Assembly (NCBI RefSeq): GCF_002222615.2
Contig: NZ_CP022412.2
Location: 2,790,001-2,854,000, forward strand
Source of the DNA: Bacteroides caccae
Lineage (GTDB): Bacteria; Bacteroidota; Bacteroidia; Bacteroidales; Bacteroidaceae
Length of the DNA stretch: 64,000 nucleotides
Direction: 5' to 3'
The notes under the pieces are model-generated. The model made no database searches and was not told the origin of the DNA. It worked only from the letters and a program-made list of their open reading frames with translations. Position 1 is the stretch's first letter; each line of letters opens with the position of its first letter. Position numbers and translations under genes: made by a program. Shown piece after piece: positions 10,984 to 64,000 of this stretch.

Positions 10984-11020
10984 ATATTGACGGTATCTGC
11001 TTGCGATATTGACGGTATCT
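10984..11020. repeat. Two direct copies of a 15-bp sequence, 22 bp apart
   Basis: ATATTGACGGTATCT occurs at 10984-10998 and again at 11006-11020, so the period is 22 bp. The copies lie in a roughly 440-bp gene-free stretch (10795-11233) that also holds the tRNA promoter and a candidate small RNA. No protein frame explains the repeat. Confidence 0.7.
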
Positions 11021-11073
11021 TAGTGAGATAGGGTAACTATGTCGACCGGACAGTGACGCTATATTTCAGAGCA

Positions 11074-40103: not shown

Positions 40104-42680
40104 TTAGAATACCATTAATACCATGAAACGAATACCGTTTTTGTTGATACCCGGATTATCACGGTAAGTGAAACGATGTACATATTCAACGTGCAGCAAC
40201 TTGAAAATGTTGTAAATGCCGACGCTTGCTTCTACGTAAGGTACTTTCGGGTCCATTACGAAACTGGTGAATTTACCGTCGCGCGTCGGGAAACGGAACA
40301 AGTCGGGATTGCTGCTTTTAAACGGATTGTTCTTGTCTGTCAACGTACCCCACAATGCGCGGACACGGAACATTTCTCTCCATTTCAAGTTTTTGAGTAA
40401 AGGAATGCGGTTGAACAACTTTCCATTCATATCGTAGGATATGGACATGGAAGCGAAGCGGTCGTTCAGGAATTCCATATTGTTAATCAAACAGAACGTT
40501 TCGCGCTGGGTGATATATGACAAGTTGGCTTCCGGCAAAATCAACAGTGGGAAAGGAACGGTATTCCACTCTGCGCCTGCCTTCACGCTGCAATCAATCT
40601 TGCCCCATGAGGCGGGAAGCCAGAAACGTTTCCAGATACTTGCTTCCGTACGGTTGAAATTATATTCTCCTCCCAGCACTCCTTTGAATCCCATGGCATG
40701 AGTCAGCGTAAAGACCGGAGCGTCTAAAGATACGGGGACACGGCGTTGTTTTGAGTTGACGAACGACTCTCCCGGTGCATAACGCAATGTCATGCTGGCT
40801 TCGGAGGTTGTGACGTCGTGTACGCGTGTCTGCGCAGCGTCATTCCGCAGATATTCCAGTTTCCCGGTCGGCTCGTCGTTACGGTGACGGAGCATGGCTT
40901 TTACACCGAATCCGGTAGGCGTTTCCAGTTCATAATTGATAGTCGCGTCGCGCATGTATGACATCTGGTCTACGGTGGTCGTTTTCAGTGACAGGAAGAT
41001 ATTATCCTTGTCAGTAAACAGAAACTTGTCCATTGGAGACATTACATCATAACTATAAGTGGCGGAGATGTAATGTTTGGGAAATTCCCATACCACATAA
41101 TCACGTTTGTTGAACGAATAAGTCAGCGTTCCGCTATATTTCCAGCGCTTGTCTTTCAGACCGTATGCTCCGTAACCGCTAAGGAACCAGTGTGGATTGA
41201 GGTTTGCGGTCGTCATACCACTCAACCGGAAACGGGTTCCGTCGATGTAGTTGCTCGAAATCATGGTGTTGATAGGGCCGATGTCGAACTTGTTCGGGCG
41301 GCCTTTGCCGGATGTTTCCACAAAGTTCTCAATCAGGGCTTTTGCACCGAAGATGATGTATTTGAATCCCGGAATCTGTTCGAGACGATTAACGAAAAGG
41401 TCCATAGTGCTTTCTTTTTTAGTCAGCGGCACCTGGCGCACGCTTGCCCAGTATTCGTCACTTTTCGAAAGCATATCCGCCTCTTTTATCACCTCTCCTT
41501 TCAATCGGAAGAGTCGCGGCTCTATCGGGTCGAACTGATAATTCGTATATTTCGTGGTACGTTCTACTTGTAGTCCTCCTGCCGTTTTGTTGGAACTCCA
41601 TGAAAGGTCTACGGTCATGTTGTCATCCGACAATACCCAGTTTCCGTTGGGGAGTTGTTCGTATTGTTGCACGATATCCATGCGGTTGACGAAGTTGACT
41701 CCGGTCTTTTTTGGCAGGTTCATGGTACATTTCTGAACGGCATATGTAGAATCGTTCAGCACGTATAGATGTCCGGTAAAACCGAAATCCTGTGAGTTTT
41801 GCGGAACGAAAGTAAGATGTACACATTCGCGTTTGTCAACCATTAATGTATCCATTAGGTAGTATTTATAAAATGAAATGGCACTACTGCCGATAGGGCT
41901 GACAAAGCGTTGTTGCAACAAACGGATATCGTCCTCGTAGATGTTAATATCGGCAAAAACATCCTTTAATACGGTGCCGAGCATATCTCCGGTGTTGAAG
42001 AACTCTTCGATACCGTTAGAGTTTTTTCCTTTAATAATGGTCTTTTTGTTCTGAGGGTCTTTGCGGAAGATAGTTTGCGAAGCTGTTTCTTGCACGGAGA
42101 TAGGAAGAATCAGTTTGTTGGTAGTTTCCGAAACTTCCACCTGATCTTTCAGGAAAGAATATTTCTTATAAATCCCTTTTTCCAGTTTTTCCGGTGTGAG
42201 ATCGTTGATCGACATTTTCATCTTCTCGTATTTGTCGTACTGGTAGTAATCGTTCACTTCGAGGACTTGTGCCTTTTTGTGTTCGATGACTTTCTTCATA
42301 AATTCGACTGCCGGGTTATTCTTGCGGGAGTACTTTTCCTTTTTGGGCTTTACTACTACTTCGTTCAATACGACATTGTCCGGGGCCAGTTGTATGTTGA
42401 TTGTCTGGTTGCCTGAACCGACTTTCACCGTTTTACTGATATACCCCACTGCGGAGAACACGAGTGTCCCCCCGTTTCTGCGGGTTTCAAGCTTATATTC
42501 TCCGTCGATATTGGTGATAGTTCCCATGTCTCTTTTTTCCTGATAGTAGACAGAGATATACATCAATGGCTCATGGGTTACGGAATCTGTAACCACCCCT
42601 TTAATTTGCTGCGCAAAAGCATTTGAACCTGCCAATACGAGTAAGAACAGTATAAGTATTTTGCTATATCGTTGTTTCAT
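40104..42680 (-). CDS. DUF5686 outer-membrane protein with carboxypeptidase-like N-terminal domain
   Basis: A large exported protein of 858 residues. A signal peptide ends near residue 23 (AGSNAFA). Residues 24-105 form a CarboxypepD_reg-like beta-sandwich (IKGVVTDSVTHEPLMYISVY) as seen at the N-terminus of many TonB-linked proteins. The remainder matches DUF5686 and its end is a series of alternating aromatic strands closing with the residues KNGIRFMVLMVF. That is an outer-membrane barrel signature with terminal Phe. Function is not established. It is the first gene of a unit with rarA. A minus-strand TAACTTTG box lies at 42700-42707, and the 22-bp-period palindrome array begins about 140 bp upstream of the start codon. 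Confidence 0.9.
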   Translation of the reverse strand: MKQRYSKILILFLLVLAGSNAFAQQIKGVVTDSVTHEPLMYISVYYQEKRDMGTITNIDGEYKLETRRNGGTLVFSAVGYISKTVKVGSGNQTINIQLAPDNVVLNEVVVKPKKEKYSRKNNPAVEFMKKVIEHKKAQVLEVNDYYQYDKYEKMKMSINDLTPEKLEKGIYKKYSFLKDQVEVSETTNKLILPISVQETASQTIFRKDPQNKKTIIKGKNSNGIEEFFNTGDMLGTVLKDVFADINIYEDDIRLLQQRFVSPIGSSAISFYKYYLMDTLMVDKRECVHLTFVPQNSQDFGFTGHLYVLNDSTYAVQKCTMNLPKKTGVNFVNRMDIVQQYEQLPNGNWVLSDDNMTVDLSWSSNKTAGGLQVERTTKYTNYQFDPIEPRLFRLKGEVIKEADMLSKSDEYWASVRQVPLTKKESTMDLFVNRLEQIPGFKYIIFGAKALIENFVETSGKGRPNKFDIGPINTMISSNYIDGTRFRLSGMTTANLNPHWFLSGYGAYGLKDKRWKYSGTLTYSFNKRDYVVWEFPKHYISATYSYDVMSPMDKFLFTDKDNIFLSLKTTTVDQMSYMRDATINYELETPTGFGVKAMLRHRNDEPTGKLEYLRNDAAQTRVHDVTTSEASMTLRYAPGESFVNSKQRRVPVSLDAPVFTLTHAMGFKGVLGGEYNFNRTEASIWKRFWLPASWGKIDCSVKAGAEWNTVPFPLLILPEANLSYITQRETFCLINNMEFLNDRFASMSISYDMNGKLFNRIPLLKNLKWREMFRVRALWGTLTDKNNPFKSSNPDLFRFPTRDGKFTSFVMDPKVPYVEASVGIYNIFKLLHVEYVHRFTYRDNPGINKNGIRFMVLMVF

Positions 42681-42818
42681 AACGTTCGTAGTAGGGCTGC
42701 AAAGTTAACAAATAACTCGGATGTTAACAGAATATATAACTTTTTTTACCCATAGTTTTTTGTTATTTGCAAGCTGTTATCGTTTGACAATGAAAGGAAT
42801 TAGTGGGTGATTCGCCTT

Positions 42819-43053
42819 TCTATAAATGAGTATCCCGCTTGTTACATTGGGTTCCCTTGCTTGTTACATTTGGTTTCCCGGCTTGAAACACTTTGTTCCC
42901 TCATGAGAAATCTTTGGTTTCGCTATATGAAACCCAAAGTTTCAAGCGTCTGAAACTAAAGTTTCTCCGTGATGAAACTAAAGTTTCCCATTGATGAAAC
43001 TATGGTTTCTCATAAGGAAACTTTTAGTTTCCCGGCACGAAACTAAAATTGGT
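42819..43053. repeat. Tandem array of 22-bp units containing a GAAACTnnAGTTTC palindrome
   Basis: Ten recognisable units start at 42841, 42863, 42885, 42907, 42929, 42952, 42974, 42996, 43017 and 43039, so the period is 22 bp (21-23). A more eroded unit lies at 42819. The best units (42952-42965, 42974-42987) are perfect 14-bp palindromes GAAACTAAAGTTTC up to the centre; others diverge outward from the array middle. Spacers of about 8 nt differ between units. The period is not a multiple of three and no ORF is supported. The array fills most of the 408-bp gap between wecB and the DUF5686 gene. Confidence 0.85.
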
Positions 43054-43088
43054 ATGCCGGGAAATGATAAAAGGTATATAGGGCGATA

Positions 43089-44174
43089 TTATTTGCCGGT
43101 AAGGATTTGTACAATGCGTTCGGCTGTACGTCCGTCCCAGCGTTCGGGAAGCTCACCTCGTTTCCATTCACCTTTCATCAGTGTATCCATTGCCTTGGCA
43201 AGTTCGGCAGGGTCTTCACCGACTAATTCGTTAGTCCCCATTCGCCAAGTTTCCGGGTGTTCGGCATACGTATTCAGCGTGATGCAGGGAATGCCCAGGA
43301 AAGTAGCTTCTTCGGCCACATTGCCGGAATCTGTGATGATTCCTTTTGCTTTGTTGATGAGATATCCGAAGAAGAGGTAGTTCTGCGGTGGCATGATATG
43401 AAGATTCGGGGCTTCGATGCCTAACTCTTTGATCGCGTTGCGTACATAAGTATGTAAAGGTGCAACGATAGGCGTTCCTGCTGATTTTTCAATGATTGTA
43501 TTCAAAAGCTGGCGCAGGTTCTCTTTGTCGTTGAGGAGTACGCGGCGGTTGAGAGTGAGCAGGAGATAGTTACCTTCTTTCAGTCCCAATACGGAAAACC
43601 AAATCGGTTTGAGTAACCGGTTCCGGTTATAGCGAATCGTATCAATCAAGATATTACCGACATAATATACATTTTCGCTTTCTGTTCCTGTTTGGTTCAG
43701 GTTACGGTTGGCAACCATTCCGGCTGTGAACAGATAGTCGGACAATCCGTCCGTAATCATGCGGTTCACTTCTTTCGGCATTTTCATATCGAAAGAACGG
43801 GTACCGGCTACGAGGTGGGCAACTTTGATTCCTTGTTTCTTGGCAACGATAGCGCAGCTCATGGTGGCAGTGAGGTCGTCTACCACGAGAACAACGTGTG
43901 CCGGGTTTTCAGTCAATTCCTGCTCGAAGGCTACCATGATTCCGGCTGTCAAACTTGTTGGATTACTGCTTTCTACTCCCAAATACACATCGGGAGCCTT
44001 CATGTCGAGGTCTGAAAACAGTGAAGCATCCAAACTGGTATCATCTTTTCTACCTGTATATACCAGGCGGTAAGAGATACTTTTACCCAGCGCCCGTGCG
44101 GCTTCAATAGCCCGTGTAATGGGTGCTATCTTCATGAAATTGGGGCGTGCCCCGGCAACAATTGTTATTTTCAT
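43089..44174 (-). CDS. wecB: UDP-N-acetylglucosamine 2-epimerase (non-hydrolysing)
   Basis: A cytoplasmic enzyme of 361 residues that interconverts UDP-GlcNAc and UDP-ManNAc. The opening MKITIVAGARPNFMKIAPI and the nucleotide-binding KGIITDSGNVAEEATFLGIP are characteristic. UDP-ManNAc feeds surface polysaccharide synthesis, but no glycosyltransferase is adjacent, so this is a supply gene outside a cluster. A minus-strand TACTTTTG box at 44209-44216 is a likely promoter, in the divergent gap with the TRIC gene. Downstream lies the 22-bp-period array. Confidence 0.93.
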   Translation of the reverse strand: MKITIVAGARPNFMKIAPITRAIEAARALGKSISYRLVYTGRKDDTSLDASLFSDLDMKAPDVYLGVESSNPTSLTAGIMVAFEQELTENPAHVVLVVDDLTATMSCAIVAKKQGIKVAHLVAGTRSFDMKMPKEVNRMITDGLSDYLFTAGMVANRNLNQTGTESENVYYVGNILIDTIRYNRNRLLKPIWFSVLGLKEGNYLLLTLNRRVLLNDKENLRQLLNTIIEKSAGTPIVAPLHTYVRNAIKELGIEAPNLHIMPPQNYLFFGYLINKAKGIITDSGNVAEEATFLGIPCITLNTYAEHPETWRMGTNELVGEDPAELAKAMDTLMKGEWKRGELPERWDGRTAERIVQILTGK

Positions 44175-61643: not shown

Positions 61644-64000
61644 TCACTCTTGTATTTTATTATTTAATTCTGGAGACAGCCATTTATTGAGCATTTTTTT
61701 CAATTCCGACTGCACGATCGGCTTGGATATGAAATCACTACATCCCGCTTCTTTGGCAGCTTTCTGGTCTTGCGGATAAGCGTATGCACTTTGAACAACA
61801 ATAGGAACGGTGGCAGACAGTTCGCGAATGATTTTCGTAGCTTCCAGTCCGTCCAGATTCGGCATTTTGATATCCATTAAGATGAGGTCAGGTTTCACTT
61901 CATCATACATTATGACGGCTTCCATACCGTCGTGTGCATGAACCAACCGATAATTCTTGCCAAGGATAGCATTCAGCAAATCATAGTTACTGTCCGTGTC
62001 TTCGGCAATCAAGATGCAGGCTTGTTTCTCAGGAATTTGTTCCTGTGGTGTTTCATTGGAGGGTTGTTCAGTCAGGTCAGAAGGTTGAGAAGACTGCGAA
62101 AGTTGTGAGGACTGCGAAGACAGTGAAGATTGCATACCTTCTGTTGTGTCCGCAGCCTTCTTTATAATATTATAAGGCAACGTAAAATTAAACGTCGTTC
62201 CTACTCCAAATTCAGAGTTGACAGTAATCTTTCCACCCAGTCGTTCAACGATCGACTTACAGATAGACAATCCCAATCCCGTGCCCTGCGCATGATTATT
62301 CAGCTTGGCAAAACGTTCGAACACACGTCCCACCTTTTCCGGTTCGATGCCTGTGCCCGTGTCGGTCACATGAAAAACGATTTGGTCGCCGACCCGTTTG
62401 TATCCATAACTAATGCTCCCTTCTTTCGTGAATTTGGCGGCATTGCCAATCAAATTAGAAATCACCTGGAACACCCGATTCTTGTCCGTTTCAATCATCA
62501 GACTTTCGTCCGAAGGCTCGTGAACGAGGCTCACGCCTACCGGCATACGGAAAATATGAGCGTCGTGCACTTCCCTGCATAAGTTGTGCAGGCTTGTAGG
62601 TCCTATGGTAAATTCGATAATTCCCGATTCAATTTTCGAAAGATCAAGAATCTCGTTGATAAGCTCCAGCAGGCGACCATTATTGGACTCAACGATACCA
62701 TAATACGTCTTTCTTTCCTCCTCATCATTACTTTCGGCGATAAGTTGCGAGAAGCCGACAATGGCGTTCAAAGGAGTACGAATCTCGTGACTCATGTTGG
62801 CGAGGAAAGCCGATTTTAGCTTGTCGGACATTTCCGCTTTCTCTTTTGACGATTGAAGTTCACGTTTGATCATCTCCAGTTCCGTGATATCCCATTCGAT
62901 GCTGACGATGATAGGAGAGGACAATTCATCCCCGTCCACCCGGATTTTCCGTTTGTCGAGGATAATCCGGTTACCGTTTTTATCCCTCCCTTCGGTCGTC
63001 CAATGCAATCCCTTTCCGGTGGTTGCCACTTGTATATCCTCCTGTCTCTTTTTATCGGCCACTATGGGCGGATAATAGTCAAAGTCATTCTTTCCGAACG
63101 ACTCACCGACGCAGAGATCACGGTTGTACGACTCACGGTTACGGTAGAGATACCGGAAATCATTATTGATCTCCTTCACCACAATTCCCGCAGGCAGATT
63201 ATTGATAGTAGTATCCATAATCAAGTTGAGTCGCTTGATTTGCGCCTCATACCGGATTCGTTCGGAAATATCATGTGCAAACGACCAGTAACTTTCTTCT
63301 CCGGAATCATTGGTCACATTATACATTGTGCCTTCGTATGCCAGAATATCCCTGTTGATTTTCGAAGGATGATGAGCGATAAAATTGCTGCTTCCGCCGT
63401 GCATGATGTCCTTACAACGTTCGTTCCACGCTTTCTGCGTAGGCATATCTGCGGCAATATCATAAATTTTCAGTTTACAGATATCCACATTCTCGCAAAT
63501 CCCGTGATTGTGGAGAAAACGCCGGTTGGCAAAGATGATCGTACCGTCCTCTCTGGCGGCAAAGATACTCTCCTTGGCGTTGTTGATAGCGTGCGTCAGC
63601 GTATTGATATCGTTTCTGCGGCGCTGGATATCGGTGATATTCTGGATATATCCCTCGATCGTAAGGCTGCCGTCCGGGAGTTCCTCACGCAGATAAGCCT
63701 GGATACGCATATAATATATCTCTCCGTTCACCTGTACGCGGTAGCTGATACTGTCCGTATTGAACCTCTCCAGATTTCTAAGTTTCCAGTTGATAAACGT
63801 CTGCCGGTCTTCTTCAACGATATACTCCCTGTATTTCTCGAAAGAAATGCTTCGTACCGTTTCTTCGCACAACACGCCGGTATGTCCCAGATAATGAAAA
63901 ACGTTTTCATTCGTATTGTACACCCACTGACCGATTTGCGCCACTTTCTGGATCTCCCGCAGCGTTCGGTTCGTTTGTTCCAGTTGGCGTTTCACGTTGC
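61644..64000 (-). CDS. Hybrid PAS sensor histidine kinase/response regulator (partial)
   Basis: The 5' end lies beyond the window: the frame is open to base 64000, and the first in-window start candidate (GTG at 63995) is inside a helical linker (EQTNRTLREIQKVAQIGQWV). Visible: three or so PAS domains to about residue 370, HisKA with phosphoacceptor near 401 (NMSHEIRTPLNAIVGF), the ATPase lobe with DTGTGIEPE and GTGLGLSICKS, then a Ser/Gln-rich linker. A C-terminal receiver follows with Asp near 703 (LILMDIKMPN) and no DNA-binding domain. It could be a phosphorelay protein. The EEP gene follows closely. Confidence 0.9.
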   Translation of the reverse strand, partial: NVKRQLEQTNRTLREIQKVAQIGQWVYNTNENVFHYLGHTGVLCEETVRSISFEKYREYIVEEDRQTFINWKLRNLERFNTDSISYRVQVNGEIYYMRIQAYLREELPDGSLTIEGYIQNITDIQRRRNDINTLTHAINNAKESIFAAREDGTIIFANRRFLHNHGICENVDICKLKIYDIAADMPTQKAWNERCKDIMHGGSSNFIAHHPSKINRDILAYEGTMYNVTNDSGEESYWSFAHDISERIRYEAQIKRLNLIMDTTINNLPAGIVVKEINNDFRYLYRNRESYNRDLCVGESFGKNDFDYYPPIVADKKRQEDIQVATTGKGLHWTTEGRDKNGNRIILDKRKIRVDGDELSSPIIVSIEWDITELEMIKRELQSSKEKAEMSDKLKSAFLANMSHEIRTPLNAIVGFSQLIAESNDEEERKTYYGIVESNNGRLLELINEILDLSKIESGIIEFTIGPTSLHNLCREVHDAHIFRMPVGVSLVHEPSDESLMIETDKNRVFQVISNLIGNAAKFTKEGSISYGYKRVGDQIVFHVTDTGTGIEPEKVGRVFERFAKLNNHAQGTGLGLSICKSIVERLGGKITVNSEFGVGTTFNFTLPYNIIKKAADTTEGMQSSLSSQSSQLSQSSQPSDLTEQPSNETPQEQIPEKQACILIAEDTDSNYDLLNAILGKNYRLVHAHDGMEAVIMYDEVKPDLILMDIKMPNLDGLEATKIIRELSATVPIVVQSAYAYPQDQKAAKEAGCSDFISKPIVQSELKKMLNKWLSPELNNKIQE

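What the first reader, a model, noticed from the sequence alone, without database searches (positions are those of the whole stretch)
42819..43053. A 22-bp-period array of palindromes between wecB and the DUF5686 gene
Ten units, plus one eroded, repeat every 22 bp with a 14-bp palindrome GAAACTnnAGTTTC and variable 8-nt spacers. Two helical turns per unit would place every palindrome on the same DNA face, fitting a cooperative protein-binding array. Alternatively the RNA could fold as a string of small hairpins. It is not coding (period not divisible by 3), and it is unlike CRISPR (repeat too short and imperfect). It lies about 140 bp upstream of an outer-membrane protein gene co-transcribed with rarA, so it may regulate it. 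Units in the middle are cleanest and decay outwards, as in a locally expanding repeat.
Basis: partly seen in the sequence, partly recalled or inferred. Interest (0 to 1): 0.75.

Follow-up and report, generated by a model that had tools for sequence, protein, structure and literature searches.

The report
Palindrome arrays scattered through Bacteroidales genomes
The tidy array of small palindromes is real, but it is one copy of a scattered family of non-coding repeats in gut bacteria and their relatives, carried in one relative by a small transposon-like element, and probably not a switch belonging to the neighbouring gene.

Summary
In detail: ten units, spacing 21-23 bp (mostly 22), at 42841-43052, arms GAAAC...GTTTC, cleanest in the middle. 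The reading as a DUF5686/rarA operator array is unlikely. The same genome holds at least 18 such arrays beside different genes. Of 60 genomes sampled in the genus 42 match the two-unit pattern: 17 with 18 or more hits, 13 at chance level. At orthologous sites arrays come and go, and their units and spacers are mostly replaced while period and arms stay. Arrays at distant loci share stretches at 89-95% identity. In Porphyromonas uenonis the same 22-bp array is the core of a miniature transposable element: 17 TIR-bounded elements, 12 with arrays, 11 with exact 10-bp target duplications. In Bacteroides arrays often adjoin a GTGAYAG inverted-repeat module (8 of 18 here); the window's array has neither module nor TIR. 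It works like BrickBuilt of P. gingivalis (a minisatellite inside a MITE) with a different repeat. Kept period and absence of wobble bias favour a DNA-level site over RNA hairpins; a binding protein is inferred only.

The parts
42819..43062 (.). 22-bp-period palindrome array, intergenic; its last unit ends 36 bp from the epimerase (wecB-like) ORF and its first unit starts 160 bp from the DUF5686 start codon
   Evidence: 0 arrays in 3 block shuffles of the 464 kb examined
42841..42855 (+). unit 1, eroded (GTTACATTGGGTTCC)
   Evidence: read
42863..42877 (+). unit 2 (2 arm mismatches)
42885..42899 (+). unit 3 (1 mismatch)
42907..42921 (+). unit 4 (1 mismatch)
42929..42943 (+). unit 5, perfect arms, 15 bp
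42952..42965 (+). unit 6, GAAACTAAAGTTTC
42974..42987 (+). unit 7, GAAACTAAAGTTTC
42996..43009 (+). unit 8, perfect arms
43017..43031 (+). unit 9, perfect arms, 15 bp
43039..43052 (+). unit 10, right arm eroded
   Evidence: read
42681..42780 (-). conserved 100 bp before the DUF5686 start codon, outside the array (88-96% identical in five species)

Best explanation
The array is one copy of a dispersed, non-coding repeat family, found nearly only in Bacteroidales: a minisatellite of dyad-symmetric 22-bp units, of the kind carried by MITE-like elements. Shown: many copies per genome, nearly all intergenic; in Porphyromonas uenonis the same array lies between a constant leader (about 129 bp) and tail (about 108 bp) ending in 18-bp terminal inverted repeats, with 10-bp target duplications, so there it moved by transposition; unit number differs between those copies; arrays at distant places of one genome share stretches, mostly without sharing flanks; at orthologous sites units and spacers are mostly replaced while period and arm symmetry stay. 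Inferred: in Bacteroides the arrays are old MITE-like or composite remnants (often beside a GTGAYAG inverted-repeat module), growing and shrinking by slippage or unequal recombination and homogenised by ectopic gene conversion. Inferred with less certainty: the unit is kept because a dimeric DNA-binding protein reads each palindrome on one face of the helix; any effect on the DUF5686 or epimerase gene is incidental.
For: At least 18 arrays of four or more units in the own genome; 40 of 42 exact GAAACTNNAGTTTC sites lie in them. Genus: 42 of 60 genomes match, 17 with 18 to 127 hits on the forward strand, reversed control at most 1 per strand. P. uenonis MITE: 8 arrays with both TIRs, 7 with exact 10-bp TSD; wider set 17 distinct TIR-TIR elements (16 P. 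uenonis, 1 Porphyromonas MAG), 12 with arrays of 4, 5 or 7 units, 11 with exact 10-bp TSD, 9 of these 11 among the 12 with arrays. Shared array sequence: L173/L174/L178 89-94% over 128-173 bp with unrelated flanks, window/L173 93% over 74 bp, window/L174 95% over 75 bp; G034 copies alike over about the array only. Turnover: among five orthologous wecB-site arrays, of 10 species pairs 3 share one unit and 1 shares one spacer, period 22 in 24 of 26 steps. Gain and loss: radC site array in 3 of 18 genomes; guaA site a weak one in 1 of 17 loci read. Period: same-length neighbours of 14 bp have 8-nt spacers 49 of 52 times in G000 and 18 of 20 in G021; of 15 bp 7-nt spacers 9 of 10 and 35 of 36. Inner pair of 15-bp units covaries: G021 10 of 23 Watson-Crick, 7 of 2000 shuffles as high; G000 6 of 11, 39 of 2000. 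No wobble bias.
Against: The window's own array shows no TIR: the inverted-repeat search finds only the palindromes and the P. uenonis TIR is absent from the window. Common descent of Bacteroides and Porphyromonas arrays is not shown: flanks differ, and of 45 and 36 distinct 8-nt spacers only one (ATCGGTGA) is shared. No autonomous transposase was found. L166 and L175 do share about 60 bp of flank besides the array. Gapped alignment of the orthologous wecB-site arrays gives 71-89% identity over aligned columns, not clearly lower than the genes beside them at 76-87%. In 14-bp units the inner pair shows no covariation beyond shuffles, nor does pair 7 of 15-bp units. At 21 mixed-length neighbours in G000 the spacing is not held at 22 on both arms, and length compensation could date from one event per unit type. 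One scored array lies on a 10-kb contig titled uncultured Treponema (L162), a mis-binned contig or a transfer outside the order.
Confidence: 0.75

Rival explanations
1. Selfish or neutral satellite: units persist only through slippage, gene conversion and template-switch correction of imperfect palindromes, with no binding protein and no function. (This differs from the best explanation only in its last step.)
For: Fast turnover of units and positions; outward decay; great differences in number among relatives; arrays share sequence.
Against: The 22-bp period is kept when palindrome length changes, and the same arms and period recur in several genera in different flanking elements.
Confidence: 0.35
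2. RNA-level element: the transcribed array folds into hairpins at mRNA 3' ends and acts like REP/BIME in stability or termination.
For: Strong predicted folds on both strands (z -5.1 and -6.3); in the own genome 7 of 17 arrays lie between convergent genes against 25 of 154 background gaps (p 0.02); no terminator-like site found at 42600-43200.
Against: No G-U over A-C bias on the sense strand, 62 against 54; in named loci 12 of 74 arrays convergent, same as background; tandem arrays nearer to the upstream 3' end in only 30 of 55; any palindrome array folds well, and as single-stranded DNA the z-score is as extreme (-6.3); in 14-bp units T-A is the commonest inner pair although pairing it would leave a 2-nt loop.
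Confidence: 0.15
3. Cooperative operator array that regulates the DUF5686-rarA operon.
For: Position 138-160 bp upstream of the start codon; two helical turns per unit; an array at the same site in four close relatives.
Against: Arrays occur beside many different genes; the array lies outside the conserved 100 bp before the start codon; L027 and L028 have the gene without an array; unit number and sequence differ between orthologs.
Confidence: 0.06
4. Degenerate CRISPR or other spacer-acquiring array.
For: Regular repeats with variable spacers.
Against: 14-15-bp repeats with 7-8-nt spacers, too short for known CRISPR (recalled); spacers recur between arrays and between species; many dispersed copies.
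Confidence: 0.01

Closest known systems
BrickBuilt MITE of Porphyromonas gingivalis (Klein et al. 2015, PMC4596501; outline, abstract, passages and section 8 seen)
   Same: Tandem minisatellite between leader and tail with terminal inverted repeats, 19 intergenic copies in strain ATCC 33277, repeat number differing between strains, long predicted stem-loops; same order of bacteria.
   Different: BrickBuilt unit is 23 nt with consensus AGAYCATARTATCCTCTCRTRTG, without the GAAAC..GTTTC dyad; the TIR rows seen read CCGAAAGGTCTC; the paper reports no BLASTn match outside P. gingivalis. Here the unit is 22 bp, palindromic, and found in several genera in more than one flanking setting.
REP/BIME with RAYT transposases (PMC3733652, search listing only; otherwise recalled)
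   Same: Short intergenic palindromes, many copies, clusters.
   Different: Strict 22-bp tandem period, no GTAG or CGTC tag seen in the unit, and PF01797 not found in the own genome.
Iteron arrays of plasmid origins (recalled, not tested)
   Same: Protein-binding sites repeated at about 22 bp, two helical turns.
   Different: Many chromosomal copies; no replication gene among the six neighbours scanned beside the window's array.

Membership tests
MITE (P. uenonis copies) | terminal inverted repeats at both ends | tested here: met
   17 distinct TIR-TIR elements in the loci held, 12 with arrays; only 12 of 106 arrays of the named set have a TIR on at least one side, 8 on both
MITE (P. uenonis copies) | target-site duplication | tested here: met
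   exact 10 bp in 11 of 17 and 7 of 8 in the first set
MITE (P. uenonis copies) | related autonomous transposase | tested here: inconclusive
   TIR search of two P. uenonis assemblies: no pair of ends at the spacing of an insertion sequence noticed in the list; not exhaustive
MITE (window copy) | terminal inverted repeats | tested here: not met
   only the array's own palindromes; P. uenonis TIR absent
MITE (window copy) | target-site duplication | not tested
   no element ends could be defined; the array-less relative L027 is too diverged to read an empty site
BrickBuilt | 23-nt repeat of the published consensus | tested here: not met
   unit is 22 bp and palindromic; consensus read differs
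REP/RAYT | RAYT (Y1_Tnp) transposase in the genome | tested here: not met
   0 matches in G000; 5 of 32 genomes in all, 3 of 16 array-rich and 2 of 16 array-poor
CRISPR | unique spacers of ordinary length and cas genes | tested here: not met
   7-8-nt spacers, some shared between arrays and species; no cas gene among six neighbouring proteins
Operator array of DUF5686 | array tied to this gene across species | tested here: not met
   at least 18 loci with different genes; absent at L027 and L028
Known Rfam RNA | match at gathering score | tested here: not met
   three matches up to E 5, all far below gathering score; none at gathering in eight loci with arrays or modules

The most novel reading that the evidence does not exclude
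The 22-bp dyad array is a DNA docking module for an as yet unknown conserved Bacteroidales protein (nucleoid, silencing or segregation factor, or a shared transposase). Different mobile and resident elements (a TIR-bounded MITE in Porphyromonas, GTGAYAG composite elements in Bacteroides) have each kept or captured it, so that it forms a scattered, evolving set of protein-loading sites on the chromosome.
Probability: 0.25. Interest if true: 0.75.

Novelty: new variant of a known kind. Interest (0 to 1): 0.5.

Why it matters
If right, common gut bacteria carry a so far unnamed repeat family whose unit length and symmetry are kept while sequence and position turn over. It offers possible strain markers, gives a defined MITE with clear target duplications in P. 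uenonis, and hands a short bait for finding the protein that reads it. The searches made turned up no paper describing it; they cover only open-licence PMC papers, and most listed papers were seen as listings only.

Tried and rejected
RAYT/REP: Pfam PF01797 search of 32 genomes, rejected. CRISPR: rejected on unit sizes and recurring spacers. RNA hairpin: wobble test negative. Lone transcription-factor sites: 40 of 42 exact motif sites lie in the arrays; the other two gave no scored array. BrickBuilt membership: rejected on consensus. TIR/TSD in Bacteroides arrays: looked for by eye in double-module loci and in G034 and G061 copies, and by inverted-repeat search in the window; none established. 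Rfam: nothing. Viral contigs: 0 matches to a three-unit pattern; plasmid collection 5 partial matches, phage collection 2 small unannotated records. Phylum sample: of 247 genomes 15 match, the 12 outside the own genus with one hit each, like the reversed control; no genome of the sample is labelled as another genus of the same order. Clustering of arrays at 1.0-2.3 Mb (13 of 18) is post hoc. Orthologous positions of 18 own arrays against the G021 arrays fetched: clear for 2 (window, L225), plausible for 2 more (L169, L167); for L174 the G021 array lies 4 kb from the matching flank. Against named species both flanks match with the array between for L169/L097, L171/L086 and L177/L135. In one search the group 'other named' still held P. 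uenonis loci, so its sharing counts are not used. Rows dropped: of 115 loci the 9 without a scored array (one search lists them, among them Ignavibacteriae L092 and Segatella L157, two units each), 31 named arrays at contig edges and 1 inside an ORF left out of context counts; in the Fisher test one 9-nt spacer in each genome; G032 not read for guaA. My ORF calls are mechanical: at a 90-aa cut one own array (L177) overlaps a 96-aa ORF and contexts read 8 convergent, 8 tandem, 1 divergent, at 100 aa 7, 8 and 2. 'Different genes' rests on reading the flanking proteins, not on family searches except in the window. One search's listing was cut, so 18 is a lower bound.

Full report
Observation. The region 42819-43062 holds ten units at 21-23-bp spacing (mostly 22), each with arms close to GAAAC and GTTTC. 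Five have perfect arms. Tandem Repeats Finder sees pieces of it with period 22. The same scoring found 17 arrays in 464 kb of this genome, stretches mostly chosen around pattern hits, and none in three block shuffles. The array lies between an epimerase gene (PF02350) and a DUF5686 gene, which is followed 4 bp later by rarA/MgsA.

Not a local feature. A two-unit pattern hits the own 4.57-Mb genome 57 times per strand, reversed control 1 and 0 (listing cut). With the one found beside a GTGAYAG module there are at least 18 arrays of four or more units. By mechanical ORF calls they are intergenic, apart from one overlap with a 96-aa ORF, and lie beside different genes. Of 42 exact GAAACTNNAGTTTC sites, 40 are in these arrays.

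Spread. In 60 genomes of the genus, 42 match: 17 have 18 to 127 forward hits, 13 no more than 2 on either strand; the control has at most 1 per strand. Most are Porphyromonas uenonis, a Porphyromonas MAG and Bacteroides species; Parabacteroides, Phocaeicola coprophilus, Prevotella jejuni and Porphyromonas somerae are there too, and one contig titled uncultured Treponema. Among 247 genomes of the phylum, 15 match, with more than one hit only in three of the own genus.

How it moves in P. uenonis. Array flanks there fall into a leader and a tail that end in the inverted repeat CAGGGCTGACGCATTATA; of 8 arrays with both ends, 7 have an exact 10-bp target duplication. A wider set gives 17 distinct TIR-TIR elements (one of them from the MAG), 12 with arrays of 4, 5 or 7 units, 11 with exact 10-bp duplications, 9 of those among the array-bearing ones; leader and tail stay near 129 and 108 bp, so length (317-387 bp) changes in the array. 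Two assemblies hold 53 and 21 such ends at up to one mismatch. This is a MITE with a minisatellite core. Most Porphyromonas arrays of the named set lack recognisable ends (12 of all 106 arrays have at least one).

Bacteroides. Many arrays adjoin a module of direct and inverted GTGAYAG repeats, in two sequence families A and B, in the same orientation relative to the array in the 24 copies aligned, sometimes on both sides. In the own genome the doublet GTGAYAGNTGAYAG occurs 10 times, 9 of them within 300 bp of an array (8 of 18 arrays; the exception is at 766015), although such places make up 0.3% of the genome. In named loci 19 of 20 module clusters lie within 300 bp of the array, but those loci were chosen for arrays. 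The window's array has no module and no TIR. I could not establish target duplications for Bacteroides arrays.

Turnover. Arrays L173, L174 and L178 share 128-173 bp at 89-94% with unrelated flanks, L178 lacking one 22-bp unit; the window's array shares 74-75 bp at 93-95% with L173 and L174; L166 and L175 share 193 bp at 91%, about 60 bp of it flank. At the wecB-DUF5686 site four close relatives carry arrays with 2-5 perfect units each; the other 25 loci read have no perfect unit, some because the downstream gene differs. Among the five arrays, of 10 pairs 3 share one unit and 1 one spacer, while 24 of 26 steps are 22 bp. Gapped alignment of these arrays still gives 71-89% over aligned columns, as repeats will. 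At the radC site 3 of 18 genomes have an array, with other interior letters but the same 22-bp period. At the guaA site 1 of 17 loci has a weak one, about 470 bp past the gene. In three named relatives the array sits between matching flanks on both sides. Thus position is inherited for a while, units are replaced, and sites are gained and lost.

DNA or RNA. Both strands fold far better than shuffles as RNA, but so does the DNA, as any palindrome array must. On the sense strand of 55 arrays in tandem-gene context G-U and A-C mispairs are about equal, 62 and 54. Among same-length neighbours 14-bp palindromes go with 8-nt spacers and 15-bp ones with 7-nt spacers (Fisher p 3e-8 in G000, 2e-12 in G021), so 22 bp is kept although the loop changes; at mixed neighbours it is 22 on one arm only, and the pattern may rest on few ancestral events. 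Inner-pair covariation is seen in 15-bp units of G021 and G000, not in 14-bp units nor at the next pair inwards. Together this favours a double-stranded, helically phased site; no reader protein was identified.

Known relatives. The closest described thing is BrickBuilt of P. gingivalis, a MITE with a 23-nt minisatellite, leader, tail and TIRs (PMC4596501: outline, abstract, passages, section 8). Its repeat and TIRs differ. PMC5771137 and PMC10969869 were read in passages only, and those passages do not describe this family. Sequence-word and topic searches found no description.

Verdict. A real repeat family for which I found no name; a new variant of the MITE-with-minisatellite kind, with the added point that one palindromic 22-bp unit recurs in several genera and settings. 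The proposed regulation of DUF5686 is unlikely.

Noticed in passing
L167, L168, L171, L172, L174, L176, L180, L224, L225 (own genome); L086, L136, L138 and others: GTGAYAG modules A and B: about 110-bp non-coding elements of direct and inverted GTGACAG or GGTGATAGG repeats ending in a T-rich tract; no Rfam match at gathering score in eight loci searched.
   Followed up: partly
L230 and L234, upstream of radC: Another palindromic repeat (GACACCCGGGTGTC-like) sits where the array lies in other species.
   Followed up: no
L060, L274, L278, L280, L286: TIR pairs of 103-175 bp or 356-357 bp without a scored array: possible deletion or diverged derivatives of the Porphyromonas MITE.
   Followed up: no
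L162, contig titled uncultured Treponema: A four-unit array (score 8.5) outside Bacteroidota by title: mis-binned contig or transfer.
   Followed up: no
NZ_OY725915.1 and other records of B. finegoldii and P. distasonis in the plasmid collection: Partial matches to the array on records listed as non-mobilizable plasmids; they may be chromosomal contigs filed as plasmids.
   Followed up: no
G000:C1 1.0-2.3 Mb: 13 of 18 arrays lie in 28% of the chromosome; GC skew of the fetched stretches changes sign between 0.45 and 1.0 Mb and between 3.3 and 3.8 Mb. Post hoc.
   Followed up: no
window 10984-11030 and 62080-62118: Two short two-copy tandem repeats (periods 22 and 18) with other consensus units than the array.
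   Followed up: no
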